Part shown: positions 35,626 to 51,216 of the stretch, in pieces | Layout of the letters: each line of letters starts with the position of its first letter | Numbering within the stretch: position 1 is the stretch's first letter | Origin: Bacteroidetes bacterium HGW-Bacteroidetes-10 | GTDB lineage: Bacteria; Bacteroidota; Bacteroidia; Bacteroidales; UBA932 | DNA: 64,000 nt | Direction of reading: 5' to 3' | Assembly: GCA_002842695.1 (NCBI GenBank) | Contig: PHDT01000001.1 | Coordinates: 62,001-126,000 of the forward strand | Translations under genes and position numbers: made by a program | The notes under the pieces: generated by a model | Seen by the model: only the letters and a program-made list of their open reading frames with translations | The model's database searches: none | What the model was told of the DNA's origin: nothing

Positions 35626-38340
35626 ATGATTGGAGAACATCCTTCAGGAGTATTGTTGTCTGAATTCATAAATTTAAGTCCTCAGGCTATTTGCATTACC
35701 ACGATGAGCGATATTCGCTTTGTCGAGGTTAACTCTAATTTTGAAAAATTTATCGGTTTAGGAAGAGATCAAATCATAAATAAAAAGCTTACAGAGCTGA
35801 ATATCAAGTTCTCCTCTGAATGGGTAGACAAAATTCTCGAAGAGGCTATGGCATTTGGTCGTATAGTCCACAAAGAGACTGAAATTGAACTTCCCGGAAC
35901 CGGCAAGCGGGCAGTAATTGTTACAAGCCATATAATTCAGATTGAAAATGAAAAATGTCTCATAACATTCGCCGATGATATCACTGAAATCAGGAAAGTA
36001 AAGGAGGAACACGAGGAGACGTTTCAGTATGTCAAAATGTTTTTTGAACAGGCTCTGGAAGGAATATTCTTTTTTGAGATTGAGGAACCTGTTGTCTGGA
36101 ATGAATTTTCGAATAAAGATAAGCTTATTGATCTTGTCTTCTCCAAAGCTAAAATTGTCGATGCAAATGATGCCTTCCTTAATCAGTACGGGATGAAAAG
36201 AGAGGAGGTACTGGGAATGACACCCTCTGATTTTTTTTCACATGATCTGGAACATGGTAAAAAAGTCTGGCGGGATTTTTTCGACAAAGGCAGGCTACAT
36301 ACAGAAACAACAGAAGTTCGAAAGGATGGTACCTTAATTCATATAGAAGGAGATTATATTTGCCTTTACGATTCAACCGGAAGAATTACCGGGAACTTCG
36401 GGATTCAGAGGGATGTTACAATTAATAAACAGTCAGAAGAGGCATTACGGGAGAGCGAAGAGAGGTTCAGACTTCTTTTTGAAAATAACCACACAGTAAT
36501 TCTTCTGGTTGATTCTGAAAGTGGTAACATTATTGATGCAAATATTGCAGCAACACTTTTTTATGGCTATTCCCATGAGGAAATTATTAAGCTGAATATT
36601 AATGTGATTAACATGCTGCCATTGGAATCGCTTAAAAATGAAATGTATAAAGCTGCATCCAACGAAAAAAGGCGCTTCCAGTTTAAGCATCGGCTTAAAA
36701 GTGGAGAAATCCGCGATGTTGAGGTTTATTCCGGAGGATTTCTTCAGGATGGAAGAACAATTCTATATTCTATTGTTCATGATGTTACAGAGTACAAAAA
36801 GAACGAAGACCTCCTCTCAAAGCTATCATCTGCAGTCAGCCAAAGTTCAGCAAGTGTGCTTATTACAGACAGTAATGGTCTGGTTGAATATGTTAATCCT
36901 GCTTTTACTGCTATAACAGGATATTCCTTTGAAGAAATCAGGGGTAAAACTCCTTCTTTCATTAATTCGGGAGTACAGAATGATGATTTTTATAATCAGT
37001 TGTGGAAAACTATCAGCAGTGGACAAACCTGGCATGGAGAGATTGCAAACAAAAAGAAAAACAATGAGATTTTTTGGGAGAGGGAGACAATTTCACCTAT
37101 CGAAAATGCATCCGGAGAGATCACAAATTTTGTAGCCATAAAAGATGATATTACAAAAGAGAAGCAATTAATTCAGGATCTGATTAATGCAAAAGAGACC
37201 GCAGAAGAGAGCGACAGACTTAAATCTACTTTTCTGGCTACAATGTCTCACGAACTACGAACTCCTCTTAACGCAATAATTGGCTTTTCCGATTTACTCA
37301 TGGATGATATTCCTAAAGAAGATATTGACTCATTTGCCTCTACAATTAACAAAAGTGGCAAACACCTGCTTGGACTGATAGAGGAGATTTTTGACATAAG
37401 CCTTATTGAAACAGGACAGATAAAACTTCACAACGAAGTTTATGATGCAACAGATATTCTCAACGATGTTTTTGCCGTTATCTCAAGGGAGCAGGCAATG
37501 ATGAATAAACAACACATAAGGCTCATAGTTAAGCATCCCGATAATCAATCTCCTCAGCATATAAAAATATCTACGGATATTAAGAGACTAAAACAGATTC
37601 TTGTTAACTTGCTCAAGAATGCACTTAAGTTTACAGATCACGGAACTATTGAATATGGGTATACCATTGTAATTATAAATGGGCAGGAAAATTTAAAATT
37701 CTTCGTTTCTGATACTGGAATTGGAATTGCAAAAGATAAACAAGAGATTATTTTTGATCAGTTCAGACAAGTTGATGATTCTCTAACACGCACATATGGG
37801 GGCACAGGGCTTGGATTATCAATTTGCAGGAAGTTGCTACAAAAGATGGGAGGTGAAATATGGGTTGAATCCGAACAGGATAAAGGAAGCATTTTTTATT
37901 TCAATCTACCCGTTGGAATTGAACTTCAACAAAAAGCTAAAACAGGAATAATAATTATGGACGAACCAATTATTGACTTCAGTGGCAAAATTCTTCTTCT
38001 GGCAGAAGATGATGATCCAAGTTATTTGCTTTTAAAAGCCATTCTGAAAAAGACTGGAATTGAAATAATCAGGGCGAAAAATGGTGTAGAAGCTGTTAAA
38101 TTTGCTCTTGAAAGAGAAGATATTAACATGATTCTGATGGATATTAATATGCCGGAGATGAATGGTCTTGACGCAACCAGATTAATAAAGGAGAAAAAGC
38201 CCCATCTTCCAATAATTGCTCAGACTGCTTATTCAATATCAGGTGACAAGGAGAAAACACTCGAAGCCGGTTGTGATAATTATATTTCTAAACCAATCAG
38301 GAAGGCTGAATTGTTTAGTATGATAGAAAAGTACTCCTAA
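35626..38340 (+). CDS. Multi-PAS hybrid sensor histidine kinase with receiver domain
   Basis: A 904-residue cytoplasmic kinase with no clear membrane segment. About four PAS domains occupy residues 5-515 (PAS/PAC ends such as GNFGIQRDVT, RTILYSIVHDVTEY, NFVAIKDDITKEK). The dimerisation domain has the phosphorylated H542 in SHELRTPLNAIIGFS. The ATPase domain (about 645-765) shows LLKNALKFT, SDTGIGIA and GGTGLGLSI. The C-terminal receiver (about 785-904) has the acidic pair EDDD, the phospho-acceptor D839 in MDINMPEMNG and K in ISKPI. By family it senses an intracellular or redox/ligand signal. No response regulator with an output domain is adjacent, so its output partner lies elsewhere. Confidence 0.9.
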   Translation: MIGEHPSGVLLSEFINLSPQAICITTMSDIRFVEVNSNFEKFIGLGRDQIINKKLTELNIKFSSEWVDKILEEAMAFGRIVHKETEIELPGTGKRAVIVTSHIIQIENEKCLITFADDITEIRKVKEEHEETFQYVKMFFEQALEGIFFFEIEEPVVWNEFSNKDKLIDLVFSKAKIVDANDAFLNQYGMKREEVLGMTPSDFFSHDLEHGKKVWRDFFDKGRLHTETTEVRKDGTLIHIEGDYICLYDSTGRITGNFGIQRDVTINKQSEEALRESEERFRLLFENNHTVILLVDSESGNIIDANIAATLFYGYSHEEIIKLNINVINMLPLESLKNEMYKAASNEKRRFQFKHRLKSGEIRDVEVYSGGFLQDGRTILYSIVHDVTEYKKNEDLLSKLSSAVSQSSASVLITDSNGLVEYVNPAFTAITGYSFEEIRGKTPSFINSGVQNDDFYNQLWKTISSGQTWHGEIANKKKNNEIFWERETISPIENASGEITNFVAIKDDITKEKQLIQDLINAKETAEESDRLKSTFLATMSHELRTPLNAIIGFSDLLMDDIPKEDIDSFASTINKSGKHLLGLIEEIFDISLIETGQIKLHNEVYDATDILNDVFAVISREQAMMNKQHIRLIVKHPDNQSPQHIKISTDIKRLKQILVNLLKNALKFTDHGTIEYGYTIVIINGQENLKFFVSDTGIGIAKDKQEIIFDQFRQVDDSLTRTYGGTGLGLSICRKLLQKMGGEIWVESEQDKGSIFYFNLPVGIELQQKAKTGIIIMDEPIIDFSGKILLLAEDDDPSYLLLKAILKKTGIEIIRAKNGVEAVKFALEREDINMILMDINMPEMNGLDATRLIKEKKPHLPIIAQTAYSISGDKEKTLEAGCDNYISKPIRKAELFSMIEKYS

Positions 38341-38350
38341 TTATGGAATA

Positions 38351-39016
38351 ATGTGTTTTTATTCTCGTCAGTCAAAGGAGGCTCTGCTCGCAGCAAAACG
38401 TTTCAAAGCAGAGGTAAGGGATCCGGAACAGTTCCTGACCAGTGATTTTATTAACGGATTCTCACATCCCTCCTGCCCTGTCATAACATCTGATAATCCC
38501 GGACTGATTTCAAACTTCACCTGGGGACTAATTCCTCAATGGTCAGATAAAGACTCTGTTTCTAATTATACTTTAAATGCGAGAATTGAAACGCTAAATC
38601 AGGTTAACTCTTTCAGGGACTATGTTAATAACAGATGCCTGGTTGTTGCTGACGGTTTTTATGAATGGAGACATGAAAGGAGAGCCGGCAGAACCTTTAA
38701 GGATAGATACCTGATAACGCTTCCTGATAATGACCTTTTCGCTTTTGCAGGACTCTACTCACACTGGAGAGATCCGGCTACAAATATTTTAAAAGGTACA
38801 TTTACAATCCTGACAACAACTGCCAGTGACTTAATGAGCAATATCCACAATACCAAAAAGAGAATGCCTGTAATTCTGAAGAAGGAAGACGAAAATTCAT
38901 GGCTTGAAGGATTTCCTGTTAACAACTTTGCTTATCCTTACAGTATTGAACTGAGTGCTTTTTATTCCCCTGAGTCTAATGAAAAAAGAGGAGACCCTTC
39001 AAGCCTCCTCTTTTAA
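38351..39016 (+). CDS. SRAP/HMCES-family DNA-crosslink protein (YedK-like)
   Basis: A 221-residue SOS-response-associated protein. Cys2, exposed after Met1 removal, is the residue that crosslinks to abasic sites in single-stranded DNA. The other active-site elements are NARIETL (Asn), DGFYEW (Glu) and MSNIHNTKKRMPVIL (His). By family it shields abasic sites at replication forks. The last 33 bases of the gene also form a terminator hairpin, so the coding end and terminator overlap. It starts ten bases after the kinase gene. Confidence 0.9.
   Translation: MCFYSRQSKEALLAAKRFKAEVRDPEQFLTSDFINGFSHPSCPVITSDNPGLISNFTWGLIPQWSDKDSVSNYTLNARIETLNQVNSFRDYVNNRCLVVADGFYEWRHERRAGRTFKDRYLITLPDNDLFAFAGLYSHWRDPATNILKGTFTILTTTASDLMSNIHNTKKRMPVILKKEDENSWLEGFPVNNFAYPYSIELSAFYSPESNEKRGDPSSLLF
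38984..39014 (+). terminator. Bidirectional terminator hairpin overlapping the end of the SRAP gene
   Basis: Perfect 10-bp stem AAAAGAGGAG (38984-38993) and CTCCTCTTTT (39005-39014) with an 11-base loop. It lies within the last codons (S-L-L-F-stop) of the SRAP gene and 20 bases before the end of the convergent Hsp20 gene, so it can serve both. Confidence 0.8.
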
Positions 39017-39033
39017 CATAATAACTTATACAA

Positions 39034-39480
39034 TTATTGTATCTCAATCATTCTTACAGGCTTTGGTTTTGCCTCATCTCTTTTAGGTATTGAAACAGTG
39101 AGGATTCCATTTTCATACTTAGCCTCAATTTTGTCGCTCTCGACTGTTACCGGAAGATTGAATGAGCGGCTGAATGACTGGTAGCTAAATTCTTTTCTGC
39201 TGTATTTTCCCTCTTCTTCTGATTCTCTCTCTTCTTGTTTTTCTGAAGATATCTTCAGAGTTCCCTGGTTAACTTCAATTTTAAAGTCATTTTTGTTTAG
39301 TCCGGGTGCCGCTACTTCGATTTTGAATCCATCCTGATTTTCCAGAATATTTACAGAAGGTATTGTTGTATTTGTATCTGAATAGTTTCTGTGGGTCCAG
39401 TCAATCCAGTCGTGATTCAAAAATTCGTTAAACAGGTTGGACCATGCAGGGTAGTTTTCGGTTCTTCTGATTAGTGTCAT
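39034..39480 (-). CDS. Hsp20/alpha-crystallin small heat-shock protein
   Basis: A 148-residue ATP-independent chaperone. The alpha-crystallin domain covers about residues 45-138, with the conserved strand KIEVAAPGLNKNDFKIEV, the late AxxxNGILTVSIPK consensus as AKYENGILTVSIPK, and a short C-terminal extension. It holds unfolding proteins as an oligomer. An unusually clear Shine-Dalgarno AGGAGA lies seven bases before its ATG (plus-strand 39488-39493). Confidence 0.93.
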   Translation of the reverse strand: MTLIRRTENYPAWSNLFNEFLNHDWIDWTHRNYSDTNTTIPSVNILENQDGFKIEVAAPGLNKNDFKIEVNQGTLKISSEKQEERESEEEGKYSRKEFSYQSFSRSFNLPVTVESDKIEAKYENGILTVSIPKRDEAKPKPVRMIEIQ

Positions 39481-39487
39481 AGTCTTG

Positions 39488-39493
39488 TCTCCT
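39488..39493 (-). promoter_or_regulatory. Shine-Dalgarno AGGAGA of the hsp20 gene
   Basis: Plus-strand TCTCCT is AGGAGA on the minus strand, seven bases from the ATG. One of only two strong matches noticed in the window. The remaining DNA from 39494 to 39717 is AT-rich with no recognised gene or clear promoter box. Confidence 0.6.
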
Positions 39494-39717
39494 TTTTATT
39501 TAAGTTAATATTATATATAATGTGTTTTACATATTTATATCAAACAAAATACCGAAGCTATTTATCCTGTATTTTCAAGACAATATGTCAGTTATTTTCC
39601 TGATATCCAGACTACATATGAAATTTTGTCAGAAAAAATGAGGCCATTATATTATCCAGAATGATTTTGGTTTACCTTTACTAATCAAATCTTAACTGTA
39701 AAATAGACTTAACAATT

Positions 39718-41217
39718 ATGAAACCCTGCTTTTCAATTACAAAACTGATTAAAGCATCGCTGTTTGCATTATTATTCCTGGTAGCTTCGTGTACTAAAGA
39801 GATTATTCCGCCTGTTGATCCCAAGCCTGATCCACCAGTAAACAATGATCCATCCAAAATTTTCAATCCTGCAACTGACAACATAGTAATAAACCATGAG
39901 ATAAGAGCTGCATGGCTGACCACAGCATGGGGTCTTGACTGGCCTGCAGGCGTTACGGGAGCAGCTGCCCAAAAAGCCTCCCTAATATCGTTGATTGAAA
40001 GACTTAAAAACCTGAATATTAATTTGATATATTTTCAAGTGAGGTGCTCTTCTGATGCCTTTTATAAATCGCTTATTTCTCCCTGGTCATCATATTTGAC
40101 AGGTACTCAGGGTATAGATCCAGGATTCGATCCACTTGAGATAGCAATTGAAGAGGCTCATAAAAGAGGTATCGAACTTCATGCATGGATGAATCCATAC
40201 AGAATTGGAACAACGGCACAATATTATGCTCCCGGGCACCCTGCACTACTCCACCCGGAATGGTACGTTACATTTGATGGTTCACGCTACTGGAATCCCG
40301 GAATGCCTGAGGTAAGAGAACACATTAAAAGTGTTGTAAAAGAGGTTGTAGACAACTATGATGTTGACGGAATTCATTTTGATGACTATTTTTATCCGAG
40401 CGGAGCAAAATCAACTACTGACCCATACAAATTCAATGACAAGGCCCAGTTTGATTTATATAATGCAGGAATGACTCTTGACAAATGGCGGGAATACAAT
40501 ATTGATGAGCTTGTTAAGGGTGTCTCACAAACCATTAAAGCTTCAAACGATACTCTCATATTTGGAATTTCTCCATCCGGCAGAATTGAAAATGCCCTGG
40601 CTCTATATGCAAATCCTCTTACATGGCTTCAGAATGGCTGGGTTGACTATCTGGCACCCCAAATCTATTGGGAAATTGGACACTCAACTGCAGATTTTGA
40701 CAGGCTTGCCAGATACTGGAACACAAATTCATATTCCAAACCAATTTTCCCAGGAGTAGCAGCCTATAAATTTGCTGATTCTCAGTATCCTGCATTCGCA
40801 TCAATGACTCAATTCCTTAACCAGGTTGAACTATGCAGATCGTTACCTAATATAAAAGGTGTATGCTGGTACAGAACACAGAATATACTTGGAGGAAGCT
40901 TTTCATCTTATCTTCTCTCTTCAATTTACCCATCATTGAGTCTGGTTCCGGAAATAGGATCTAAAACATATGCAGTCCCCGGAACTCCTGTAATCTCACA
41001 TTCATCTAACACAATAAACTGGAGCGCATCAACCAGCGCAACTCACTATGCTGTCTACGAATTAAAAAGAAGAGGCAATACAGGCACATGGGATGCACTT
41101 GGCAGGCAAACAGGATCACAAACAACATTCAATGCTTCTGCTCAAAAGAATTATATGGTAATAGCTGTTAACGGAAGAAAACCTTCACCGGCAAGCAATG
41201 TTGTTTATATCCAGTAA
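39718..41217 (+). CDS. GH10-like (DUF187/YngK-type) glycosidase lipoprotein
   Basis: A 499-residue lipoprotein; signal peptide with lipobox LVASC (Cys at about 24) then a Pro/Asp-rich tether. The glycosyl-hydrolase-like 10 domain spans about 60-390: IRAAWLTTAWGLDWP, ELHAWMNPYRIG, DGIHFDDYFYPSG, and WLQNGWVDYLAPQIYWE, all typical. Members of this family act on cell-wall or surface glycans, with YngK a characterised neighbour in name only. The C-terminal about 80 residues look like an FN3-type beta domain. Likely faces the periplasm or the cell surface. Confidence 0.85.
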   Translation: MKPCFSITKLIKASLFALLFLVASCTKEIIPPVDPKPDPPVNNDPSKIFNPATDNIVINHEIRAAWLTTAWGLDWPAGVTGAAAQKASLISLIERLKNLNINLIYFQVRCSSDAFYKSLISPWSSYLTGTQGIDPGFDPLEIAIEEAHKRGIELHAWMNPYRIGTTAQYYAPGHPALLHPEWYVTFDGSRYWNPGMPEVREHIKSVVKEVVDNYDVDGIHFDDYFYPSGAKSTTDPYKFNDKAQFDLYNAGMTLDKWREYNIDELVKGVSQTIKASNDTLIFGISPSGRIENALALYANPLTWLQNGWVDYLAPQIYWEIGHSTADFDRLARYWNTNSYSKPIFPGVAAYKFADSQYPAFASMTQFLNQVELCRSLPNIKGVCWYRTQNILGGSFSSYLLSSIYPSLSLVPEIGSKTYAVPGTPVISHSSNTINWSASTSATHYAVYELKRRGNTGTWDALGRQTGSQTTFNASAQKNYMVIAVNGRKPSPASNVVYIQ

Positions 41218-41236
41218 ATATTGAACCTGCGGAAAA

Positions 41237-42619
41237 TTATTTACTTTTTGAAATAATCCAGGAGGCCATCTTTTCCATAACTTCGGGAGAGATGGTCTCT
41301 TCTATTTTCTGATATTCTGTTGTATTCCCTGTTTCAGAGTGCTGAAACAGATGATTTAAACCGGGAAATTCAACTATTTCAACAACTTTGCTAAATGAGT
41401 CTAAATTATTTCCGTGCGCTTTCATCAAGGATTCCCGGATTGCGCTTAGATTCGTTTTGGCCGGAACCTGCATATCATTGCTACCATTCATTGCCAACAC
41501 AGGTAAAGTAAGTTTCTTGAGTGCATCAGATGGATCATATGTCAAAAAAGTAACCATCCAGGGATTTGCAACAGCATAAATCTGACTTTCAAGTTGCTTT
41601 TCAGTGGCTTCAGGAGCATTCAGCTTAAAGAAATCCATTAAGATCTTTTTCATGTCCGGATTATTTTTCTCTCTGGCAATAATTGAATGCAACTCTCGTG
41701 TAATTTTCTCAAATTCGTCCAGAGAAGCAGCATCCAGCCCAGACCTCTCACCACTTAATCTTTGCTGAAACAAAATGATTTCTGCACCTGTAACTCCAGG
41801 AGCAGCCATAAGAATGACGAATCCCAGCTTGTCGTCCATATTAGCAACTAAAGGAGCAATAATGCCACCCTCGCTATGCCCTATAAGACCTATTTTAATA
41901 TCATTAAACTCCTCCCTGCTCCTAAGGAACTGAACTGCGGAATATGTGTCCTGAGCAAAGTCAAATGTTGTTGCTGTTGCATGGTTACCTTTGGATTTTC
42001 CAACCCCTCTGTCATCATACCTCAGGACAGCAATACCTCGTTTTGTCAAATAATCCGAAATTACAAGAAAGGGTTTATGTCCAAGTATCTCTTCATCTCT
42101 GTTTTGAGGTCCGCTTCCGGAAATCAATATTACAGCTGCAGATGGCTTGCCGGTTGAAGGCATGGTCAAGGTTCCTGAGAGTTCTATGCTATCTTTAGCG
42201 TTGAGAAAAGTAACATCTTCTGTAGTATACGGGTACGGTTTCCGTGGTTCCTGAGGTCTTTTTGGCCCTGCCGGGGCCCTTCTTGAAAGATTCATAGGCA
42301 ATGACATTGAACCTTGTCTGAATGTTCCAAGAATTGATTCTCCGGTAAAAACACCAGTATATTCAACTGATGCATTTGCAATTACAATCTTAACCATAGG
42401 ATTGTTAAAACTGACAGAAGTAACTGGTATGCCTGTAACCCCCTGATCCGGGCTATCCATAGTTGCAGTGTACAGAGAGTCTGTCTGTGAGATGTTGAAT
42501 ACAACACGAAGGTTAATTGACTGCATGTTGAGATTACCATACCAGCTTCCTGCGAAGTTCTGGGCATTAACTCCTGAATTAAGAATTAACAGAGCAATTG
42601 CTAGAATAATTTTTTTCAT
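41237..42619 (-). CDS. Secreted alpha/beta-hydrolase (serine esterase/peptidase-like)
   Basis: A 460-residue exported enzyme: signal peptide ending near GVNAQ; a lipocalin-like beta domain (20-115, FAGSWYGNLN ...); and an alpha/beta-hydrolase domain from about 135. The catalytic triad is Ser in GHSEGGI, Asp in MNGSNDMQVP, and His in GLNHLFQ. The oxyanion region is ILISGSGPQNRDEE. Similar Bacteroidota proteins are annotated as S9-type or DLH-like hydrolases; substrate unknown. A terminator separates it from the YjbH unit upstream. Confidence 0.82.
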   Translation of the reverse strand: MKKIILAIALLILNSGVNAQNFAGSWYGNLNMQSINLRVVFNISQTDSLYTATMDSPDQGVTGIPVTSVSFNNPMVKIVIANASVEYTGVFTGESILGTFRQGSMSLPMNLSRRAPAGPKRPQEPRKPYPYTTEDVTFLNAKDSIELSGTLTMPSTGKPSAAVILISGSGPQNRDEEILGHKPFLVISDYLTKRGIAVLRYDDRGVGKSKGNHATATTFDFAQDTYSAVQFLRSREEFNDIKIGLIGHSEGGIIAPLVANMDDKLGFVILMAAPGVTGAEIILFQQRLSGERSGLDAASLDEFEKITRELHSIIAREKNNPDMKKILMDFFKLNAPEATEKQLESQIYAVANPWMVTFLTYDPSDALKKLTLPVLAMNGSNDMQVPAKTNLSAIRESLMKAHGNNLDSFSKVVEIVEFPGLNHLFQHSETGNTTEYQKIEETISPEVMEKMASWIISKSK

Positions 42620-42633
42620 ATGATATTAGAAAT

Positions 42634-42661
42634 AAAAAAAAGCTTGTAATTGATTACAAGC
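42634..42661 (-). terminator. Intrinsic terminator (minus strand) ending the YjbH/lipoprotein unit
   Basis: On the minus strand GCTTGTAAT and ATTACAAGC (plus coordinates 42642-42661) pair perfectly, with two bases between the arms, and are followed by eight T. It lies 26 bases after the stop of the 241-residue YjbH-like gene and upstream of the hydrolase gene. Confidence 0.85.
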
Positions 42662-42687
42662 CGCAATTTAATAAAAATCTCTGCTAC

Positions 42688-43413
42688 TTAAATCGTAAAC
42701 TGTGCATGTATACCAATTACAGGATATTTAAGCTGGTTCATAAGCAGCTGTAAATAGAGATGTTTAAAAAGAATAATATTTGCTCCCAGGTTGAAATGCT
42801 TGGTATCATATTCTGCAATAATATTCAACTCTTTGTAAAACTTAGGAGAGAAACTGATTCCGCCGGAAACAGGAAATTGCTGATTTACATGCACGCTAAC
42901 GGGAATATTGTATGCTGCATGTACTCCAAGTTCATTCCCTCCAAGATCGAAATGCTTTGTAAGTGCAAGATATGTCGTTCCGAAATATTTATTTCCGTCT
43001 GCATATCCCAATAAAGATGAAGTAGATATAACATCATTAGATCCAATTACAACGGCGGGCCAATACTTTCCCTCCTTAATTGGTCTGATTCTGAGGGAAA
43101 TTGATCTGTCAACATTGCTGAAACGACCCTGATTCCATAAGTCGAATGCTGTATTTGTCATTGCAATCTCTGCAAATGAAACAAATGTAATATTAACAAA
43201 GAAATTGAAAGTATGGTAATCCCAGGTATCCGGTGTAAACTGCTTTGGAAGGAAGTTACCCCCAATCTTAACAGTTTTATCCTCGGACATCTCTGCATTT
43301 GGACTGTTCAAAAGTCCGGTTACTCCCAGCGTACTCTGGGCATATATAAAAGAAGATGTCAGGAGCAGCAAAGCTACTCCCAACATCCTTTTAATTAGTG
43401 CATCAAATCTCAT
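42688..43413 (-). CDS. YjbH-like outer-membrane protein, short form
   Basis: A 241-residue exported beta-rich protein; signal peptide ends at IYAQ. The mature N-terminus TGLLNSPNAEM resembles the start of YjbH, the outer-membrane component of an exopolysaccharide system in E. coli. Alternating strands (YHTFNFFVNITFVSFAEIAMT, ISLRIRPIKEG) suggest a small barrel. E. coli YjbH is around 700 residues, so this covers only its N-terminal type of sequence. It is the last of three genes between a promoter box (46102) and a terminator (42634). Confidence 0.65.
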   Translation of the reverse strand: MRFDALIKRMLGVALLLLTSSFIYAQSTLGVTGLLNSPNAEMSEDKTVKIGGNFLPKQFTPDTWDYHTFNFFVNITFVSFAEIAMTNTAFDLWNQGRFSNVDRSISLRIRPIKEGKYWPAVVIGSNDVISTSSLLGYADGNKYFGTTYLALTKHFDLGGNELGVHAAYNIPVSVHVNQQFPVSGGISFSPKFYKELNIIAEYDTKHFNLGANIILFKHLYLQLLMNQLKYPVIGIHAQFTI

Positions 43414-43440
43414 TCAGAAATTTATTTTTTCCGAAATTGA

Positions 43441-44775
43441 TTAGATTGTACCACCGCCACCAAGACCGTGGTCATGACCATGAAGGTGTGCGTGAGCGTG
43501 GTCGTCATAAATAAGGTCTTCAAACATCAGGTCAACCTGTCCGGCCATAATAGTTCTGACTTCAATAGTCTTGGTAACTGTACCGGCTGTATTGGTTACT
43601 TTGATTGAAAATTTCTTAGCTGTGAAAGTCTGATTTGCAGAAGCTACCTGATAGTACATCGGCTGAATTGTTCTTTCAATAGCTTTTGTATAAGTTGCTG
43701 TTCCAAAATCAGCCAGTGGCGCAATACCATTGAAGTGATTTCTAACCAATTCAGTGATTGAAGCAATAAGTTCTGTCTGATCTGCTCCGGTTATACCCAG
43801 ATTTGTTAGAGTTGTAGCCAAAGGCTCGGCAAACTTGTAGCCTTGTTTCTCAATGTATCTGATTCCGGTTACATTATAAGGAGTAAGACCTCTGTTAATC
43901 ATGAGACTGTCAAGTACCTTAATACTTTCAGTTGATGAAGCCTCTTCAACAACCGGTGCCTGAAATGACACTTTATAAAGTGAGAAGTGGGTAATTGAAG
44001 TAAGATAATCATTTGAAGCAGCATTGAAAGTTACAGGAGTTGCCTGTACTTCCCATTTGCTAAGAGTATTGTTGAAATACTCAAGCTGAAGTTCTGAATA
44101 TTTGTATGTAGTAAGCGGATTGTCAACTGTAATTGTCAAAGGCTTGCTGAATACCAGTCCAGATGGTTCAAAACGAAGTGTCATGATTCCAGGATTGTTA
44201 ACCAAACCTGTAATTACGATATCGTTTACTTCAACAGCAGTAATGTTAATAGGACCTGAAACAGTTGCACCGTTTGCATCTTTTACAGTTGTTCCTGATG
44301 TGAAGGTAAGTGTTGCATCGTTGGCTCCTCCTTCAATATTTATCGTTCCACCTGCAAGTGGATCAAGAGGAGTGATTCCAGGTACATAAGGAACCATTGT
44401 CATTGTAATGCTGTATACAAGGTTGTGGTTAAGGCCAGCTGTAGGGAACTCAAGTGAGTACTGAGCAGAAAAGAAATCGGCCTTTGTAAGAACAATGTTG
44501 TATTTGCCTGCAGTTGTCAGATTAGCAAATTCAAACTTACCAAAACTGTCAGTAGTTGCTGTTTTGGTTCCCATTGTAACGGTAACGCCAGGCAGATATG
44601 CCTTGGTTGTGTTGTTGAACACCTGTCCCTTGATTGTGTAGGTAGCTGGCTGAGGCTCCGGTGTAGGAGTTGGCTCAGGTACTTTAGTACATGAGGCTGC
44701 ACCTACGAGTGCAGCAACCAGAAGAGTGGCAGAAGCCGCTCCAATAAGTCTTGAAAAGATTTTGCTTGCTTTCAT
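43441..44775 (-). CDS. Lipoprotein with regulatory-like beta domain, ZU5-like domain and His-rich tail
   Basis: A 444-residue lipoprotein (lipobox VGAASC, Cys near 29) with a Pro/Thr/Glu linker. Residues of about 45-125 are a carboxypeptidase-regulatory-like domain (YTIKGQVFNNTTKAYLPGVT). Residues of about 145-280 resemble a ZU5-like beta-sandwich (RFEPSGLVFSKPLTITV ... THFSLYKVSF). The C-terminus carries six His in eleven residues (HAHAHLHGHDH) followed by glycines, probably a metal-binding tail. It lies 11 bases after one YjbH-like gene and 27 before another. No known function was recognised; surface attachment or metal-linked assembly with the two barrels is inferred from order only. Confidence 0.7.
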   Translation of the reverse strand: MKASKIFSRLIGAASATLLVAALVGAASCTKVPEPTPTPEPQPATYTIKGQVFNNTTKAYLPGVTVTMGTKTATTDSFGKFEFANLTTAGKYNIVLTKADFFSAQYSLEFPTAGLNHNLVYSITMTMVPYVPGITPLDPLAGGTINIEGGANDATLTFTSGTTVKDANGATVSGPINITAVEVNDIVITGLVNNPGIMTLRFEPSGLVFSKPLTITVDNPLTTYKYSELQLEYFNNTLSKWEVQATPVTFNAASNDYLTSITHFSLYKVSFQAPVVEEASSTESIKVLDSLMINRGLTPYNVTGIRYIEKQGYKFAEPLATTLTNLGITGADQTELIASITELVRNHFNGIAPLADFGTATYTKAIERTIQPMYYQVASANQTFTAKKFSIKVTNTAGTVTKTIEVRTIMAGQVDLMFEDLIYDDHAHAHLHGHDHGLGGGGTI

Positions 44776-44786
44776 AGAATTTTTGG

Positions 44787-46010
44787 TTAATTATTAGTTG
44801 AATTTAAGATTATTTGATTTAAGCGCATTTTGGTAAAAAAGTTGTACGACGAATTCTCGTCGGGTGAAGTCGTGAAATATCTGCCATGTTCTGTATAAGG
44901 TCTGGCGATATATTCGAGCGGGAAATAGTTTCCGGCTGAAACTCTAACAAATTTGTTTCGTTTATGTTTATATGGTGGTAAAGAAATTGCAAAATAAAAC
45001 CCTCCGTTTACAGGAAAATCAGGAATATCCATTGTCTGTACATAAAATCCAACTGCTGCGTTTCTGAAATATCTGGTTACCTCTCCCCTCACAGATAAAT
45101 CGTTCCCGAGATATTTTGCCAGGTTTAGGTTAAACATTAAATTCCAAGGCTTTACAATATAGTTTGCACCAACTTTCCAGGTAAATTTATCCGGATTTGT
45201 ATAGTACCAGTCGTTGAAAAAAGGTACAGAATATGCTGTATAACTTAACTGAGCATATACGCCTGTTCTTGAACCAACCGGTTTATACAATTTTAAATCT
45301 GCACCGGCCCTGAACATATTAAAATTCCCTACTGTAGCCATTGCATGGATATTGAACGGAAGTCTGAATTGCTGGGAAAGGGTGAGAAAGCCGGGTCTGA
45401 TTCTTCCCTCTTCAGTTGAATAGTCATTTAGCAGTGGAAAAATTACCTGTGCTGTAGCGGTTGCTCCTCTCCACAATGAAATTTCCAGAGTTGGATTAAT
45501 GTTTAGCTGTAAAAGATACATTACATCAAGCCTCGAATTTTTAAAGCGAAAAATTGGATAAAACTTCAAATCAACCTTTCCAAATGAAGAGTTTTCAAAT
45601 TTTTTTCCATCGATATCGTTAAGTGCAGCAATTCCCTCTTCAACGTTAAAATCCGAATACCAGCGAGAACTTGAAGGATCATCTGCAAGTGTCGAGTACA
45701 ATCTGAATTTTGGTATTCTTTCCTCCATGAGAATAACTTCTATATTTTTCGATTTAAACTCTGGAATGAGGGTTTCAACTGCATTTTTAACAGATTCAAC
45801 AACTCTGTCTCCATGAGTAAACGACTCGCTTTCAATAAAAATAATCTCTTTGCCTGCCTTGGATATATGCCTTACATTTTCGAATCCATTTGCAAATAAT
45901 GCCTCTTCAATTGCGCTCTGAGCAAAAATTCCAGTGCCAACAAGCAAGAGAGAGAGAACAGCAGCTAAGGAGCGAAATGCATGTTTTATGTTTGAAAGCA
46001 TTGATTTCAT
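44787..46010 (-). CDS. YjbH-like outer-membrane protein, long form
   Basis: A 407-residue exported protein; signal peptide ends at GIFAQ. Residues of about 27-115 form a periplasmic alpha/beta segment (NGFENVRHISKAGKEIIFIE; AVETLIPEFKSKNIEVILME), and residues 120-407 are barrel-like strands (NINPTLEISLWRGATATAQV). The mix resembles the C-terminal part of YjbH, while the short gene at 42688 resembles the N-terminal part; together they are about YjbH length. It is first in the three-gene unit, with a minus-strand -7 box at 46102-46109. Confidence 0.65.
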   Translation of the reverse strand: MKSMLSNIKHAFRSLAAVLSLLLVGTGIFAQSAIEEALFANGFENVRHISKAGKEIIFIESESFTHGDRVVESVKNAVETLIPEFKSKNIEVILMEERIPKFRLYSTLADDPSSSRWYSDFNVEEGIAALNDIDGKKFENSSFGKVDLKFYPIFRFKNSRLDVMYLLQLNINPTLEISLWRGATATAQVIFPLLNDYSTEEGRIRPGFLTLSQQFRLPFNIHAMATVGNFNMFRAGADLKLYKPVGSRTGVYAQLSYTAYSVPFFNDWYYTNPDKFTWKVGANYIVKPWNLMFNLNLAKYLGNDLSVRGEVTRYFRNAAVGFYVQTMDIPDFPVNGGFYFAISLPPYKHKRNKFVRVSAGNYFPLEYIARPYTEHGRYFTTSPDENSSYNFFTKMRLNQIILNSTNN

Positions 46011-46101
46011 TAAGTTTAGGCAACAAAGTTTTTCACTCTGCGAATGTAACTAATTTTTCTAACCTAATCAAATTAATTTGAATTTATTATGATTTTTTAT
46101 T

Positions 46102-46109
46102 CAAACTTA
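46102..46109 (-). promoter_or_regulatory. -7 promoter box TAAGTTTG (minus strand) for the YjbH/lipoprotein unit
   Basis: CAAACTTA on the plus strand reads TAAGTTTG on the minus strand, matching TAnnTTTG, 91 bases from the ATG at 46010. The leader would contain an AT-only palindrome (46068-46081). Confidence 0.4.
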
Positions 46110-46161
46110 ACTTATTAACCATAAGAGAGTAAAATCAAAGTGCATTGTAGAATTATTAAAT

Positions 46162-46169
46162 TAAATTTG
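46162..46169 (+). promoter_or_regulatory. -7 promoter box TAAATTTG for the umuD-vanZ-umuC operon
   Basis: TAAATTTG fits TAnnTTTG, 32 bases before the ATG at 46202. A tandem repeat at 46177-46198 follows directly. Confidence 0.5.
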
Positions 46170-46176
46170 CAGAAAG

Positions 46177-46198
46177 TTCAAAATTTATTCAAAATTTC
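46177..46198. repeat. Tandem 11-bp direct repeat at the umuD promoter
   Basis: TTCAAAATTTA and TTCAAAATTTC are adjacent copies differing only in the last base, starting eight bases after the -7 box. The 11-base period places both copies on the same DNA face, as expected for a cooperative operator. Confidence 0.5.
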
Positions 46199-46201
46199 TC
46201 T

Positions 46202-46633
46202 ATGAAAGTAAAAAGTCTCGAAATATTCAAGCCCGACGAAGGAACACCACTATATTTAACAATCACAGATTCACCTGTTTATGCAGGCTTCCCATCACCA
46301 GCAGACGATCATCTTGAAAACAAGCTTGATCTTAACAAGGCGCTTGTAAAAAATCCATCTTCAACCTTTTTTGCAAGAGTCAAAGGAGAGAGCATGATTG
46401 AGGACGGCGTTGAGGAGGGAGATCTGCTTGTTATCGATAAATCTGCAGAACCTCATGAAGATTGCCTTGCCGTATGCTTTCTGGAGGGAGAATTTACACT
46501 TAAGAGAGTAAAACTTGATGGAGATGATCTGCTTCTTATGCCTGCAAACCCAAAATACAAACCAATAAGAGTCAAAAAAGAAAACGACTTTTACATCTGG
46601 GGAATTGTAAAATATCTGATAAAAAAAGTATGA
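46202..46633 (+). CDS. umuD: UmuD-type S24 self-cleaving protein
   Basis: A 143-residue LexA/UmuD-like peptidase without DNA-binding domain. The self-cleavage site is A28-G29 in VYAGFPSPADD. The Ser-Lys dyad is S64 (KGESMIEDG) and K101 (FTLKRV). RecA-stimulated cleavage would give UmuD' for DNA polymerase V. Its stop overlaps the VanZ-like start as ATGA. Confidence 0.92.
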   Translation: MKVKSLEIFKPDEGTPLYLTITDSPVYAGFPSPADDHLENKLDLNKALVKNPSSTFFARVKGESMIEDGVEEGDLLVIDKSAEPHEDCLAVCFLEGEFTLKRVKLDGDDLLLMPANPKYKPIRVKKENDFYIWGIVKYLIKKV

Positions 46634-47043
46634 TCAAGTCTTTTGTACAACTCTTCCGTTATCTGTTTGCAATTTATATTGCACTTGTATTGTTTTTCTG
46701 CTTATACACATTCAGCAATACGGGGATTAACCTATCTGAATATATTTTCGGAATCCGTGCAGATCGTATTGCTCACTTTATAATGTTTTTCCCATATCCT
46801 GTCTCGGCATGGCTTGCTCTTAAGGAGAACTTCAGAAAAAGCTTTCCTAAATATCCGGTGCTGATGCTTATGTTAACAGGAGCAGCCCTGGCGCTTACAG
46901 CAGAAGTTCTTCAAAAATTTAATCCGGCCAGAGAGTCAGATATATATGACCTTGCAGCCAATGTTGCCGGTATTGTTGCCGGTACATTACTGACACTCCT
47001 TTTCAGAAAAATAATTGATAATGTTTGGCCTGACAGATTGTAA
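46630..47043 (+). CDS. VanZ-like membrane protein inside the UmuDC operon
   Basis: A 137-residue protein with four predicted membrane helices. The VanZ-like pattern is visible: [13 protein letters not shown] between helices 1 and 2, and the conserved [19 protein letters not shown] at the last helix. The biochemical role of VanZ-like proteins is unsettled; one member gives teicoplanin resistance. Overlap by four bases with umuD and by 23 with umuC makes co-translation likely, but no SOS function is known for the family. Confidence 0.8.
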
Positions 47044-48283
47044 TAATTTTTATGTAAGCTGCGAGAGATTGTTCAATCCCTCACTTGAAGGCAGACCTGT
47101 AGTTGTTTTAAGTAATAATGACGGGTGTGTAATTTCTCGCTCCAATGAAGCTAAAGCGCTGGGAATTGGAATGGGTGAGCCAATTTTTAAAATGAAAGAG
47201 ATTGTCAGCAGAGAAAGAATAGCCTGTTTTTCTGCAAACTTCTCTCTTTATGGAGATTTATCTGCCAGGGTAATGGATAAACTGAGGTCATATTCGCCGG
47301 GTATTGAAATATATTCTATAGATGAGGCATTTCTTGATCTGTCTGGTGTTCCTGAAAAGGAAATCAAATCCCTTGGGCCGGAGATTGTAAGAAGAATAAA
47401 GAAAGATATTGGAATTCCTGTTAGTCTTGGTGTTTCACATACCAAGACACTTGCAAAGGTGTCAACAAGACTTAGTAAAAAGTACCCGGCAACAAAGGGT
47501 TTCTGCTTTATGCAAAAGAAGGAAGATATTGCCAGGGTACTTGTAAAGTTCCCTGTGGATGATATCTGGGGCGTAGGAAGAGCCTATTCCAAAATGCTTA
47601 AGTCTTATGGAATAATGACAGCTATGGATTTCACAAAGAAATCACCTGAGTGGGTTAAATCAAAAATGGGAGTGCCGGGAGTAAAAAGCTGGAGAGAACT
47701 AAATGGTGAAGCTTGTATAAGACTAGAGGACAGAGTACTGGATAAAAAGCAGATTTGCACAAGCAGAAGCTTCTCCCGGGATCTTTATGATTTTGAAGAG
47801 ATTTGCAAAGCAGTGGCAACATTTGCAGCCTCGTCTGCAGAAAAGCTCAGGCAGCAGAGAGGAGGGTGTAAGGAGATAATTGTCTTTATTCTTACCAATC
47901 CATTCAAGGATAATGCAAAACAACACTATCAAAGTGCAGTTGTCACACTTGTCAGTCACTCAGACAGCACATTCACTATTGCCGGAGCAGCATGCAATGC
48001 TCTAAGAGATATTTTCAGGCAAGGTCACGGTTATAAGAAAGCCGGGGTAATATTGTCAGATATTTCAAGAAAATCAGATTTGACAATGTCACTTTTTGAA
48101 GATCCCTTACAAGCAGAAAAAGAGAGTTCTGTGATGTCTGTTATGGATGAGATAAACTCTCGATATGGCAGACATTCTATATATACAGCTGCTGCAGGGG
48201 TTGAGAGAATTCAATCAAATCAGAATTTGTTATCTAAAAGATATACAACATCATGGGATGATATTATTGAAGTAAAAGTTTAA
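47021..48283 (+). CDS. umuC: Y-family DNA polymerase V catalytic subunit
   Basis: A 420-residue translesion polymerase. Catalytic motifs: [17 protein letters not shown] (first Asp) and [10 protein letters not shown] (Asp-Glu pair). The helix-hairpin-helix segment [17 protein letters not shown] and a little-finger domain follow. A UmuC-type C-terminal tail is present. ATG 47021 is preferred; a TTG at 47015 would add two residues. The gene starts within the VanZ-like gene, and its last 20 bases overlap the end of a convergent GH13 gene. Confidence 0.93.
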
Positions 48284-49913
48284 GAATAATACAGCCATAT
48301 TCCGGCACTTTTAAATCAATTGGCACTGAACTGCCCAGTACAATACTTTCATCTTTTCCGTTCACAAGATTAACTGCTGGCAACTCTATACCATCTGAAA
48401 TTCCAAAGAATTCAAACATATGTGCGGGAAGAATTAACTTAGCAGAAACAGCTGTTTTCGAGAAATTTACAATCACAATGATGAGCTCTTGCCCAAGTTT
48501 CCTTACAAAAGAGAATAAAATGTCAGGATTATAGCAGGAATTTGACTGGTTTGCATATTGAAGATCGAATGAATCTCCTGAATGAAATGCACTCTCGGTT
48601 AAAGCAAGATTAAGAAGTATCCTGTATCTGTCTCGTAAATGCGAATCGTATTTATCATTCAACCAATTTCTTATAGTTTCAACAGACCAGTAGTCAAAAA
48701 TTGAAGTTCTCCCATCTGCAGAGCTGTAACCCTCATTGTCCATGCCTTTTTCCCCAAGCTCCTGACCAGAATAAATCATAAAGGGAGCCCTGTTTAAAAG
48801 GAGAGAGACAGCAAATGCAGGTAATGCCTTCAATGGGTCACCTGCAAAGTAAGGAGATGCAATGCGTTGTTCATCATGGTTTTCCAGAAAATTAAGCATT
48901 TTATCCTGAATTCCGGAAAGTGACTGCCAGCATCGAGTTATTTCAGAAGCAGGAAGTGTTCCGCGGACAATTTTCTTCAGGGTATCGTATAACCCAACTT
49001 TATCGTAAAGATTATCAAATCCTGCATCAAGGTATGCGTGGTAAAGGTCCGGCCTGTATATTTCTGCAATAAAAAGAGTAAAGGGATAGCTCTTTTTAAT
49101 TATTGATATTGCATACCCCCAGAACTCCACAGGAACCATCTCTGCCATATCACACCTGAAGCCGTCCACACCTTTTTCACACCAATAGAGAAGTATGTCT
49201 GTCATCTTAACCCATGTGTCAGGGATTGGGTCAAAATACTTAATCCCATTTTGGTAATTAACACCATAGTTTAGTTTTACGGTATCATACCAGTCATTGC
49301 TTGAAGGATTCTCTTTAAAGCAGTCGTTTCCTGTTGCTTTTGCAGGATATTCAGTATAAGTATCCGAAGTATGCTCAGGAGGAATAAAATCTTTTCCAGG
49401 TATGTAATAGAAATTATTTGAAGGATGAAAAGCAACCGAATTATCATCATTTGCTCCAAACTCTCCTACTCTACCGGGATTTGAATCAGACACATAAACC
49501 CTTGAAATATGGTTAGGTACATAATCTATTAAAACTTTTACTCCAAGTTTATGACACCTGTTTGCAAGTTCACTGAACTCCTCTAACCTCTTTTCCGGAA
49601 CAAGAGCAAGGTCGGGTGAAATATCATAATAGTCCTTAATTGCATAAGGAGAACCGGCTTTTCCCTTAACGACAGAGTGAGGATCGGGGGGGGCTCCTAT
49701 ACTTGAATGATCTGTTTGAGTAGCATGTTCTAATATACCTGTAAACCAAATATGTGTACAACCCAAATCTTTTATTGAGAGAATAACATCGTTTGTAAAA
49801 TCTGCTAGCTTACCACAACCGTTAGTCTCAGAAAAAGAATTGGGAATACAAACATCGTTCGTATTCCCAAACAATCTGGGTAAGACCTGATATATAATAA
49901 ACTTGCGATTCAC
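48264..49913 (-). CDS. Cytoplasmic GH13 alpha-amylase family enzyme
   Basis: A 549-residue glycosidase with no signal peptide. All four GH13 regions are visible: [10 protein letters not shown] (D130-H135); [10 protein letters not shown] with nucleophile D255 and R253; III, FIAEIY with acid/base E284; [11 protein letters not shown] with D347. The C-terminal about 100 residues form the small beta domain. A role in glycogen or maltodextrin breakdown is likely. It starts four bases after the PPi-type phosphofructokinase gene, so sugar release and glycolysis are co-transcribed. Codons near residue 74 contain a run of eight C (plus-strand G 49686-49693). Confidence 0.88.
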
Positions 49914-49916
49914 AGC

Positions 49917-51152
49917 CTACCAGTTAAGTATCTTTCTGAAGTCGTACTCTTCAGGATTCTTCAGATACTCTTTAGCAGCCTCGTAATCATCTTTTGTTAT
50001 ATAGTGCATGATATTGTTTATGATAGCCTGTACACGGTCTGAGTGAAGGCTTACAAGTCTTGGCGGAATCTTTCCTGTTACAGGATCCTGGATATCTTTA
50101 AGGTAAAGGGGCTCTACCTTGCCAAGATTGTCGATATAAACCATACATCCTGTTTTGCCTTCATCAAATAACTGATGAACAGCTATTCCCAACTCTGTAC
50201 AGTAAACAAGGTCATATGCACTTGGTGACTGACACCTTAACTCATAACCAAGTTCAACCGGCCTCGATTTAACCTTAATTCCAAGTTCTTTAATTTTCTT
50301 CTCAACCAGCTCATTGAAAATGTGTGCTTTTGAGACCTTTCCAAGTTCTGGATGACCATGTTCATCATAAGAAAAAGTAACACCTGACATTTTCAGCTCT
50401 TCTTCATTCAGTTCATGGAACACACCCTCAGAGATCATAACAGCACCATAATTGATACCTAATGTTAATCTCTTAACTATTGAAGATACTGCGAGTTTAA
50501 CAATCTTATCTATAGTAATAGTTGTTTTGTCAAACATCTCAGGAATAACAATCATCGGGTAGTGAGCCGCAGAACCAATACCAAAGGCCAGGTGGCCGGC
50601 AGAACGTCCCATAGCACAAACTACAAACCAGTTATTGCTGGTTCTTGCATCTTCATATACTGTTGTTGCAAGTCTGGCTCCTTCTGATTTTGCCGATTCG
50701 TATCCGAAAGTAGGACGCGCTAGAGGCAGAGGTAGATCATTATCAATAGTTTTTGGTACGTGGATGTTGGAAATCGGGAAGTTGTGTTCTGACAGGAACT
50801 TTGCTACTCTGTTTGCTGTTGATGCAGTGTCGTCTCCTCCAATGGTAACTAATAGTTTAATATTGTTTTCCTTGAAGAATTCCAGATTAAAGTTTTGTTC
50901 AAAATCAACCGGAGTAGGTTTATATCGGCTCATAATAAGGTATGATCCTCCTCTGTTGAATATGGAATCTGCCATTAAGAAGTCGATTTCAGTAAAATTC
51001 GGGTTCTTTGAAAAGATACCCTTGTACCCTCCATGAAATCCTAAAACACGGTATCCGTTTGAAATGAAGGTTTTTGCGATACTGCCAACTACAGTATTCA
51101 TTCCAGGTGCGGGTCCTCCACCCGTCAAAATTACAATTGATTTTTTCATCAC
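49917..51152 (-). CDS. 6-phosphofructokinase, probably PPi-dependent
   Basis: A 411-residue PFK. The nucleotide/PPi loop is ILTGGGPAPGMN. Two diagnostic positions point to pyrophosphate as donor: GGDD at 105-108 (ATP enzymes have GGDG) and K134 in PKTIDND (ATP enzymes have G). The fructose-6-phosphate segment MGRSAGHLAFGIG is also present. By family it phosphorylates fructose-6-phosphate, reversibly if PPi-linked. It is first in the operon with the GH13 enzyme; a minus-strand -7 box lies at 51171-51178. Confidence 0.87.
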   Translation of the reverse strand: MMKKSIVILTGGGPAPGMNTVVGSIAKTFISNGYRVLGFHGGYKGIFSKNPNFTEIDFLMADSIFNRGGSYLIMSRYKPTPVDFEQNFNLEFFKENNIKLLVTIGGDDTASTANRVAKFLSEHNFPISNIHVPKTIDNDLPLPLARPTFGYESAKSEGARLATTVYEDARTSNNWFVVCAMGRSAGHLAFGIGSAAHYPMIVIPEMFDKTTITIDKIVKLAVSSIVKRLTLGINYGAVMISEGVFHELNEEELKMSGVTFSYDEHGHPELGKVSKAHIFNELVEKKIKELGIKVKSRPVELGYELRCQSPSAYDLVYCTELGIAVHQLFDEGKTGCMVYIDNLGKVEPLYLKDIQDPVTGKIPPRLVSLHSDRVQAIINNIMHYITKDDYEAAKEYLKNPEEYDFRKILNW

Positions 51153-51170
51153 GTTACTTTATTGAGCCCG

Positions 51171-51178
51171 CAAAGTTA
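51171..51178 (-). promoter_or_regulatory. -7 promoter box TAACTTTG (minus strand) for the PFK/GH13 operon
   Basis: CAAAGTTA on the plus strand reads TAACTTTG on the minus strand, the same octamer as the valS box, 18 bases before the ATG at 51152. No clear -33 element. Confidence 0.5.
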
Positions 51179-51205: not shown

Positions 51206-51216
51206 TATAGAAAATT

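What the first reader, a model, noticed from the sequence alone, without database searches (positions are those of the whole stretch)
42688..46010. Self-contained unit: two YjbH-like outer-membrane proteins around a His-tailed lipoprotein
Three minus-strand genes with gaps of 11 and 27 bases lie between a -7 box at 46102-46109 and a strong terminator at 42634-42661. The outer two look like the two halves of YjbH, split and in swapped order (407 plus 241 residues, against about 700 in E. coli). Between them is a lipoprotein with regulatory-like and ZU5-like beta domains that ends in HAHAHLHGHDH. I know of no described system with this composition. Inference: an outer-membrane assembly or export unit in which the His-rich tail binds metal. 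No yjbE/F/G-like or glycan-synthesis genes are adjacent, so exopolysaccharide export is only a guess.
Basis: partly seen in the sequence, partly recalled or inferred. Interest (0 to 1): 0.62.

Follow-up and report, generated by a model that had tools for sequence, protein, structure and literature searches.

The report
Split capsule-export barrel with partner lipoprotein
Three neighbouring genes encode the two parts of a known outer-membrane sugar-polymer export protein as separate proteins, plus a lipoprotein that accompanies them widely in the Bacteroidota; the arrangement is real and conserved, was partly noticed in 2015, and still has no tested function.

Summary
Genes A (407 aa), B (444 aa) and C (241 aa) lie at 42688-46010, minus strand. 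C matches the N-terminal barrel of YjbH/GfcD, and A its periplasmic-plus-C-terminal barrel part, so YjbH/GfcD is split here and the operon order is swapped. In 296 genomes of the phylum no listed YjbH match spans both parts.

A and C co-occur even when unlinked: of 393 genomes, 20 have A, 22 have C, 18 have both (1.1 expected). C loci away from A carry polysaccharide genes (10 of 15; control 2 of 20); A-B loci without C do not (0 of 15).

B is a lipoprotein with transthyretin-like, ZU5 and toxin-fold-like domains. Its conserved feature is a C-terminal H-x(1-3)-G end (37 of 38), not the histidine run, which 3 of 10 near loci lack. This argues against metal binding as the main role.

A 2015 paper already noted His-tailed lipoproteins of this kind beside DUF940 (= YjbH/GfcD) and OmpA-like genes, so the composition is not new. 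Best reading: a split GfcD-type export complex for an exopolysaccharide, with B as dedicated partner. Rival: B is itself the cargo.

The parts
44787..46010 (-). Gene A, 407 aa: signal peptide, YjbH/GfcD middle domain and C-terminal barrel
   Evidence: hhalign to YjbH 315-655 E 1.6e-9; PF06082 14.8 bits, below cut-off; relatives up to 66.4 bits on profile 271-597
45681..45914 (-). A residues 33-110: alpha/beta periplasmic domain, counterpart of GfcD-M
   Evidence: AlphaFold2 model, block pLDDT 56-83; alignment
44889..45581 (-). A residues 144-374: beta-barrel region, about 13-14 strands, low confidence
   Evidence: best fold matches are membrane beta-barrels, Z up to 11.9
43441..44775 (-). Gene B, 444 aa lipoprotein (lipobox ...GAASC29)
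   Evidence: Cys29 invariant in the seven sequences
44392..44646 (-). B residues 44-128: transthyretin/carboxypeptidase-regulatory-like domain
   Evidence: PF13620 E 1e-7, 32.6 bits against a cut-off of 32.3; pilin BcpA match Z 4.8
43957..44379 (-). B residues 133-273: ZU5 domain
   Evidence: ankyrin-B ZU5 6m3q Z 10.7, rmsd 2.8, 114 aligned; UNC5b Z 7.7; GAIN domain of CD97 Z 8.1
43981..43989 (-). B residues 263-265, HFS at the end of the ZU5 domain; possible autocleavage site (not tested)
   Evidence: H[FL][ST] at residues 200-330 in 20 of 38 B proteins
43501..43956 (-). B residues 274-425: elongated beta domain resembling the fold of aerolysin-family proteins and Bacteroides 3kog
   Evidence: Z 4-7 only; Foldseek 3kog E 2.2e-4
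43444..43500 (-). B residues 426-444: His/Gly-rich C-terminal tail; conserved core H-x(1-3)-G
42688..43413 (-). Gene C, 241 aa: YjbH/GfcD N-terminal barrel
   Evidence: PF06082 profile 2-119, 40.7 bits; hhalign to YjbH 4-279 E 1.5e-19
42641..42662 (-). Terminator-like hairpin, 9 pairs, followed by seven T
   Evidence: 3 such sites found against 2.6 expected in shuffles, so only its position supports it
46102..46109 (-). TAAGTTTG, Bacteroidota -7-like box
   Evidence: consensus recalled

Best explanation
The unit is a split GfcD/YjbH-type outer-membrane export complex with its dedicated lipoprotein. C is the N-terminal barrel and A is the periplasmic gate plus the C-terminal barrel that in GfcD is predicted to have a lateral exit. 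They are made as two proteins and should act together. B is anchored by its lipid, binds A through its folded domains or its H-x-x-G-type C-terminal tail, and takes the place that lipoprotein GfcB (with GfcC) has in E. coli. The cargo is most likely an exopolysaccharide, perhaps lipid-anchored, made by genes elsewhere in the genome. Shown here: homology of both halves, the split, the A-B pairing, A-C co-occurrence, and the glycan neighbourhood of C. Inferred: assembly of A with C, binding of B, nature of the cargo, direction of transport.
For: Homology; L101 A 64.8 bits. A-B pairing: of 42 A loci with complete flanks, 38 have a B nearby. Co-occurrence in 393 genomes of the order: A 20, C 22, both 18, against 1.1 expected (hypergeometric p 2.6e-25, genomes treated as independent). 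In 8 of those 18 the two genes are on different contigs. Glycan genes (initiating sugar transferase, Wza, Wzc, Wzx, WecA-type, MBOAT, AlgX) lie in the fetched stretch for C away from A in 10 of 15 loci (8 of the 10 within 2.2 kb of C), for A with C in 5 of 16, for A without C in 0 of 15, and in 2 of 20 control regions. L115 reads B-barrel-C-A-Wza-Wzc, matching gfcD next to gfcE-etp-etk in E. coli. L031 reads A-B-C-MBOAT-AlgX. In enteropathogenic E. coli His-tagged lipoprotein GfcB pulls down GfcC and GfcD (PMC8592465, passages). The own genome has two Wza/Wzc-type sets and a Wzx-type gene on another contig.
Against: A-B loci without C show no glycan enrichment at all (0 of 15), and in a first count with fewer gene types A loci did not exceed control (4 of 41 against 2 of 20). 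The A profile A5 was seeded partly from loci found through C, so it may miss A genes of genomes without C; this would inflate the co-occurrence. B is not related to GfcB or GfcC (hhalign probabilities 0.4% and 0.2%). The barrel part of the A model has low confidence (mean pLDDT 57.5), so the lateral gate was not seen. C was not modelled. No glycan gene of the types searched lies in the 20 kb around the window locus. Genus member G206 lacks both A and C.
Confidence: 0.58

Rival explanations
1. B is the cargo: A (with C or another barrel) is a dedicated exporter that puts lipoprotein B on the cell surface, and the conserved C-terminal H-x-x-G tail is the export or docking signal.
For: B has conserved ends and a variable middle: in 20 loci that I chose of the 28 outside the genus, B is 157-504 aa long with mean identity 0.17, A 380-447 aa with 0.26. 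The tail is in 37 of 38 B proteins. In G272 the remnant of a second A lies beside an intact second B. FapF, a polypeptide exporter, is among the best folds for A (Z 11.6).
Against: A-C co-occurrence and the glycan neighbourhood of C are unexplained. One duplication only. No export signal of this kind is known to me.
Confidence: 0.25
2. One reading: the His-rich tail binds metal and this is the point of the unit.
For: Six His in the last 25 residues of window B. PMC4387736 also speculates on metals or charged groups.
Against: The His-rich insert is missing in 3 of the 10 near loci with a complete tail. In 20 of 38 B proteins there is a single His in the last 25 residues.
Confidence: 0.07
3. B is a membrane-active effector: its ZU5 domain self-cleaves at HF/S and releases the toxin-fold-like C-terminal domain, with A and C as its secretion channel or immunity partner.
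For: ZU5 fold Z 10.7, HFS at its end, and aerolysin-family fold for residues 274-425. Autocleavage at a conserved SF/S motif in CARD8 and NLRP1 through a ZU5-like domain is reported (PMC3210808, title and abstract start in the listing).
Against: H[FL][ST] is in only 20 of 38 B proteins, and some B proteins look too short for these domains (157 aa in L055). Z 4-7 can be a common arrangement. I saw no conserved immunity-type gene.
Confidence: 0.05

Closest known systems
GfcD / YjbH (PF06082, formerly DUF940) of Escherichia coli
   Same: Both parts are homologous: C to residues 4-279, A to 315-655. A lipoprotein gene lies next to it. In relative L115 Wza and Wzc follow directly.
   Different: Two proteins instead of one, in swapped operon order. 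The lipoprotein is unrelated to GfcB and GfcC. No Wza/Wzc found beside it in the window.
BVU_4064 (3kog) and BF1687 (3g3l) type lipoproteins, DUF3869/DUF3870 (PMC4387736)
   Same: Lipobox, transthyretin-like N-domain, toxin-fold-like C-domain, His-rich end, neighbours DUF940 and/or OmpA-like. The B profile hits 3g3l at E 2.1e-6, and the B of relative L094 hits it at 4.5e-28 including its tail.
   Different: Window B has an added ZU5 domain and does not match PF12985.
FapF amyloid exporter and PgaA-type polysaccharide porins
   Same: Barrels that PMC9603273 (passages) likens to the N- and C-halves of GfcD/YjbH; FapF Z 11.6 for the A model
   Different: Resemblance of fold only; different partners

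Membership tests
YjbH/GfcD (PF06082) | Curated score reached | tested here: inconclusive
   C 40.7 bits over the cut-off of 24; A 14.8 bits, under it; A relatives up to 66.4 bits
YjbH/GfcD (PF06082) | N-barrel, middle domain and C-barrel in one chain | tested here: not met
   Two genes. None of the 42 matches listed spans both parts; those over the cut-off lie in ORFs of 236-450 aa.
YjbH/GfcD (PF06082) | C-barrel with lateral gate between first and last strand | tested here: inconclusive
   Model pLDDT 57.5; barrel-like but too poor to judge
gfcABCD / yjbEFGH operon | The lipoprotein next to the barrel is GfcB/YjbF, or a GfcC/YjbG partner | tested here: not met
   B against GfcB and GfcC profiles: probabilities 0.4% and 0.2%; only B was compared
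Group 4 capsule export locus | Wza and Wzc next to it | tested here: not met
   None found by my profiles in window 34501-54500; met in relative L115
DUF3869-type lipoproteins (3kog/3g3l) | PF12985 domain | tested here: not met
   Window B hits CarboxypepD_reg instead; L094 B hits PF12985 with 46.2 bits
DUF3869-type lipoproteins (3kog/3g3l) | Lipobox, His-rich C-terminus, DUF940 neighbour | tested here: met
   definition
DUF3869-type lipoproteins (3kog/3g3l) | Pore-forming-toxin-like C-terminal domain | tested here: inconclusive
   Z 4-7; 3kog Foldseek E 2.2e-4
Autoprocessing ZU5/FIIND domains | ZU5 fold | tested here: met
   Z 10.7, rmsd 2.8, 114 aligned
Autoprocessing ZU5/FIIND domains | Self-cleavage at HF/S or SF/S | not testable with these tools
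   Motif only, 20 of 38 B proteins

The most novel reading that the evidence does not exclude
The H-x(1-3)-G tail is a C-terminal recognition signal, not described as such in what I saw, for a Bacteroidota-wide lateral-gate exporter: A (with C, an OmpA-type or another small barrel) recognises the tail of lipoprotein B and moves B, or a glycan attached to B, to the cell surface. In ZU5-bearing members, B then self-cleaves at HF/S into a lipid-anchored and a released-but-bound fragment.
Probability: 0.15. Interest if true: 0.8.

Novelty: new variant of a known kind. Interest (0 to 1): 0.5.

Why it matters
The proposed export of lipid-anchored polysaccharide through the lateral gate of GfcD rests on models and simulation (PMC11494523). 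A natural split of GfcD into two separately encoded parts lets each part be deleted, tagged or swapped on its own. The A-C co-occurrence gives a genome-wide test of which partners belong to the machine. The conserved tail gives a concrete handle on what a widespread, structurally known but functionally unknown class of Bacteroidota lipoproteins does.

Tried and rejected
Metal binding as the conserved function of the tail: rejected, because the His run is limited to part of the genus and its nearest relatives. B as a GfcB or GfcC relative: rejected. A simple 'capsule locus' reading of A-B: weakened, because A loci as a whole were not enriched for glycan genes in the first count (4 of 41 against 2 of 20); only C is enriched. 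The glycan profiles were built from few sequences, several of them from the tested loci (L020, L022, L026, L031, L057, L097, L113-L115), and MBOAT and AlgX were added after I had seen them in L026 and L031, so the counts lean towards those loci. Leaving out the source loci L020, L022 and L026, C away from A is 7 of 12; leaving out the five A-with-C loci that gave profiles and hits, A with C is 0 of 11. Pfam confirmed genes in these loci.

Rows dropped before the counts. L046 (same locus as L052), L050 (contig ends inside A) and the A remnant of G272 were left out. Of 45 A loci examined, L044, L030 and L104 are cut by contig ends before the tail of B, and L100, L116, L117 and L118 have no B that I could find. 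That leaves 38 B proteins. L112 was missed by the first ORF picking and recovered. The B genes of L112, L114 and L115 gave no hit with the B profile and were taken as B by position, lipobox and tail, which is circular for the tail count; without them the count is 34 of 35 (loose) and 29 of 35 (strict). In one search I left out the own-genus loci other than the window, and L030, L104, L117 and L118.

Others. NCBIfam TIGR04134 (radical-SAM-associated lipoprotein) matches 8 of 14 B proteins weakly (best 1.9e-6; window 0.0016 with 18.5 bits, cut-off 39.8); I take it as shared transthyretin-like sequence. A PF12985 search over 149 genomes hit mostly long ORFs (24 of 26 rows 591 aa or more) and did not help. 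Sequence search of solved structures with the genus profile alone found nothing better than E 0.22. Among the top 50 fold matches of A a few are not membrane barrels (an alpha-mannosidase, a ribosomal chain). The HFS contexts printed are mis-indexed (a script slip); those are right.
Full report
What is there. The window lies in a 2.41 Mb draft genome. Its nearest named relative found is an uncultured Bacteroidetes MAG (A 88% identical; records very near the window may be left out there). Three minus-strand genes, A 44787-46010, B 43441-44775 and C 42688-43413, are separated by 11 and 27 bases. A TAnnTTTG box (46109-46102) precedes them without a well-placed second box. A hairpin with a T run (42662-42641) follows them; hairpins of this kind are about as frequent in shuffles.

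What A and C are. C hits Pfam YjbH over profile 2-119 with 40.7 bits; A hits 479-599 with 14.8 bits, under the cut-off of 24. That alone would leave A open. Profile-profile comparison settles it: A aligns to E. coli YjbH 315-655 and C to 4-279. A proteins of other genomes hit the YjbH profile over 271-597 with up to 66.4 bits, and that of L101 over 479-603 with 64.8. GfcD is modelled as an N-barrel (19-278), a periplasmic domain (279-423) and a C-barrel with a lateral aperture (424-698) (PMC11494523: first of five parts and passages read). A is therefore the middle domain plus C-barrel, and C is the N-barrel. The model of A has a fair alpha/beta domain at 33-110 and a poor barrel region (mean pLDDT 57.5). 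Its best fold matches are membrane beta-barrels, KdgM Z 11.9 and FapF Z 11.6 among them. C was not modelled.

The split is general in what was searched. A search of 296 genomes of the phylum with Pfam YjbH found matches in 31. None of the 42 matches listed spans both parts, and those over the cut-off lie in ORFs of 236-450 aa. Gene order varies: A-B-C here and in L025, L031, L106, L107 and L112; B-A-C in L019; C-A-B in L097 and L102; B-C-A in L114 and L115.

The halves belong together. Among 393 genomes of the order, 20 have A, 22 have C and 18 have both; 1.1 are expected (relatedness of genomes ignored). In 8 of the 18 (G031, G069, G073, G145, G165, G177, G335, G430) they lie on different contigs. 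Two genomes have A only (G040, where A runs into a contig end, and G196) and four have C only (G029, weak; G160; G352; G364). One caution: several rows of the A profile came from loci first found through C, so A genes of genomes without C may be under-detected.

Link to polysaccharides. C loci away from A have an initiating sugar transferase, Wza, Wzc, Wzx, MBOAT or AlgX gene in the fetched stretch in 10 of 15 cases, 8 of these within 2.2 kb of C. A loci with C have one in 5 of 16; A loci without C in 0 of 15; control regions in 2 of 20 (C away from A against control p 0.0009). The first, smaller count gave 4 of 41 A loci, 4 of 7 C-only loci and 2 of 20 control. In L115 the order is B, small barrel, C, A, Wza, Wzc, with Wzx further on. 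In L031 A-B-C is followed by MBOAT and AlgX-type acetylation genes. In L020 C stands beside Wzc and Wza. The window genome has two Wza/Wzc-type sets and a Wzx-type gene on contig C37. The window locus itself has no such gene within the 20 kb tested and sits in a neighbourhood that is largely kept in the genus loci read.

What B is. B has a lipobox, a carboxypeptidase-regulatory-like domain (PF13620) and a ZU5 domain at 133-273 (ankyrin-B Z 10.7). Residues 274-425 resemble aerolysin-family folds at Z 4-7, and the tail has pLDDT under 50 from 433 on. The ZU5 domain ends in HFS; H[FL][ST] is found at residues 200-330 in 20 of 38 B proteins. Autocleavage at SF/S through a ZU5-like domain is reported for CARD8 and NLRP1 (PMC3210808, title and abstract start in a listing); HF/S in PIDD is recalled. 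The B profile matches the solved Bacteroides fragilis protein 3g3l (E 2.1e-6), and the B of L094 matches it over domain and tail (4.5e-28).

The tail. Of 38 B proteins, 37 have H-x(1-3)-G in the last 20 residues and 29 have H-x(1-3)-G[GC] in the last 22. In control regions the figures are 17 and 3 of 306 ORFs, and 1 and 0 of 31 lipoproteins. Internal 22-residue pieces of B give 2 of 537 for the stricter form. Three of the 38 (L112, L114, L115) were taken as B partly because of the tail; without them 34 and 29 of 35. With the nine other near loci removed, 28 and 21 of 29. Examples: CHDQGGGK (L095), CHEGGGGE (L106), PHNQGGITQGPF (L111), NCHQGCN (L098). The histidine run of the window is an insert that L048, L049 and L054 lack. 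So the conserved feature is the terminal H-x-x-G-type end, not histidine richness.

Prior knowledge. PMC4387736 (parts 1 and 2 of 4 and passages read) describes lipoproteins BVU_4064 and BF1687 with a transthyretin-like domain, a toxin-like domain and a His-rich end. It says that such genes are often accompanied by OmpA-like and/or DUF940 genes and that they may form membrane complexes. It does not use the name YjbH. DUF940 is the GfcD/YjbH family (PMC8592465, passages). I saw no report of the split of GfcD/YjbH, the A-C co-occurrence or the H-x-x-G tail. My searches for this were made, in open-licence papers only, and the supplements of PMC4387736 (which hold its neighbourhood table) were not read.

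Mechanism. The simplest model is a GfcD machine made of two proteins with a lipoprotein partner. GfcB, the E. coli lipoprotein, binds GfcD and GfcC (PMC8592465, passages), so B would be an unrelated protein in the same place. The weak points are that A-B without C is not found near glycan genes, and that B has conserved ends and a variable middle, as a cargo would. I therefore keep 'B is the cargo' as a serious rival.

Noticed in passing
43981-43989 (B residues 263-265): HFS at the end of a ZU5 domain, the sequence type at which eukaryotic ZU5/FIIND domains cut themselves (partly recalled); H[FL][ST] in 20 of 38 B proteins.
   Followed up: partly
L053:8040-12869 (genome G272): Order A-B-C, then a decayed remnant of a second A and an intact second B: a tandem duplication in which B but not A was kept.
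   Followed up: partly
L031:6683-8146: The C gene is fused to an OmpA peptidoglycan-binding domain.
   Followed up: yes
L098, L099, L100, L103, next to A: A gene of 951-959 aa stands divergently beside A in four genomes; in L099 it is an M14 carboxypeptidase with a type IX secretion tail, and each of the four loci has one match to a profile of it.
   Followed up: partly
L021, L023, L055, L057, L095, L096, L097, L105, L115: A further small gene (216-250 aa), by its ending a small outer-membrane barrel, sits near B; those of L055, L095 and L097 match OMP_b-brl, those of L023, L057 and L115 matched nothing. L108 and L111 have a 366 aa gene there, OmpA-type by Pfam in L108.
   Followed up: partly
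46202-48283: Divergent UmuD-like, VanZ-like and UmuC-like genes (names from reading the sequence, not searched), kept next to A in most genus loci read.
   Followed up: no
G206 (same genus as the window): This one-contig genome, rated 99% complete, lacks both A and C, which suggests the halves are lost together.
   Followed up: no
G000:C37:12000-31900 (L216): Two Wza/Wzc-type sets with Wzx- and CapD-type genes in the window's own genome; searches with A, B and C found no copy there.
   Followed up: partly
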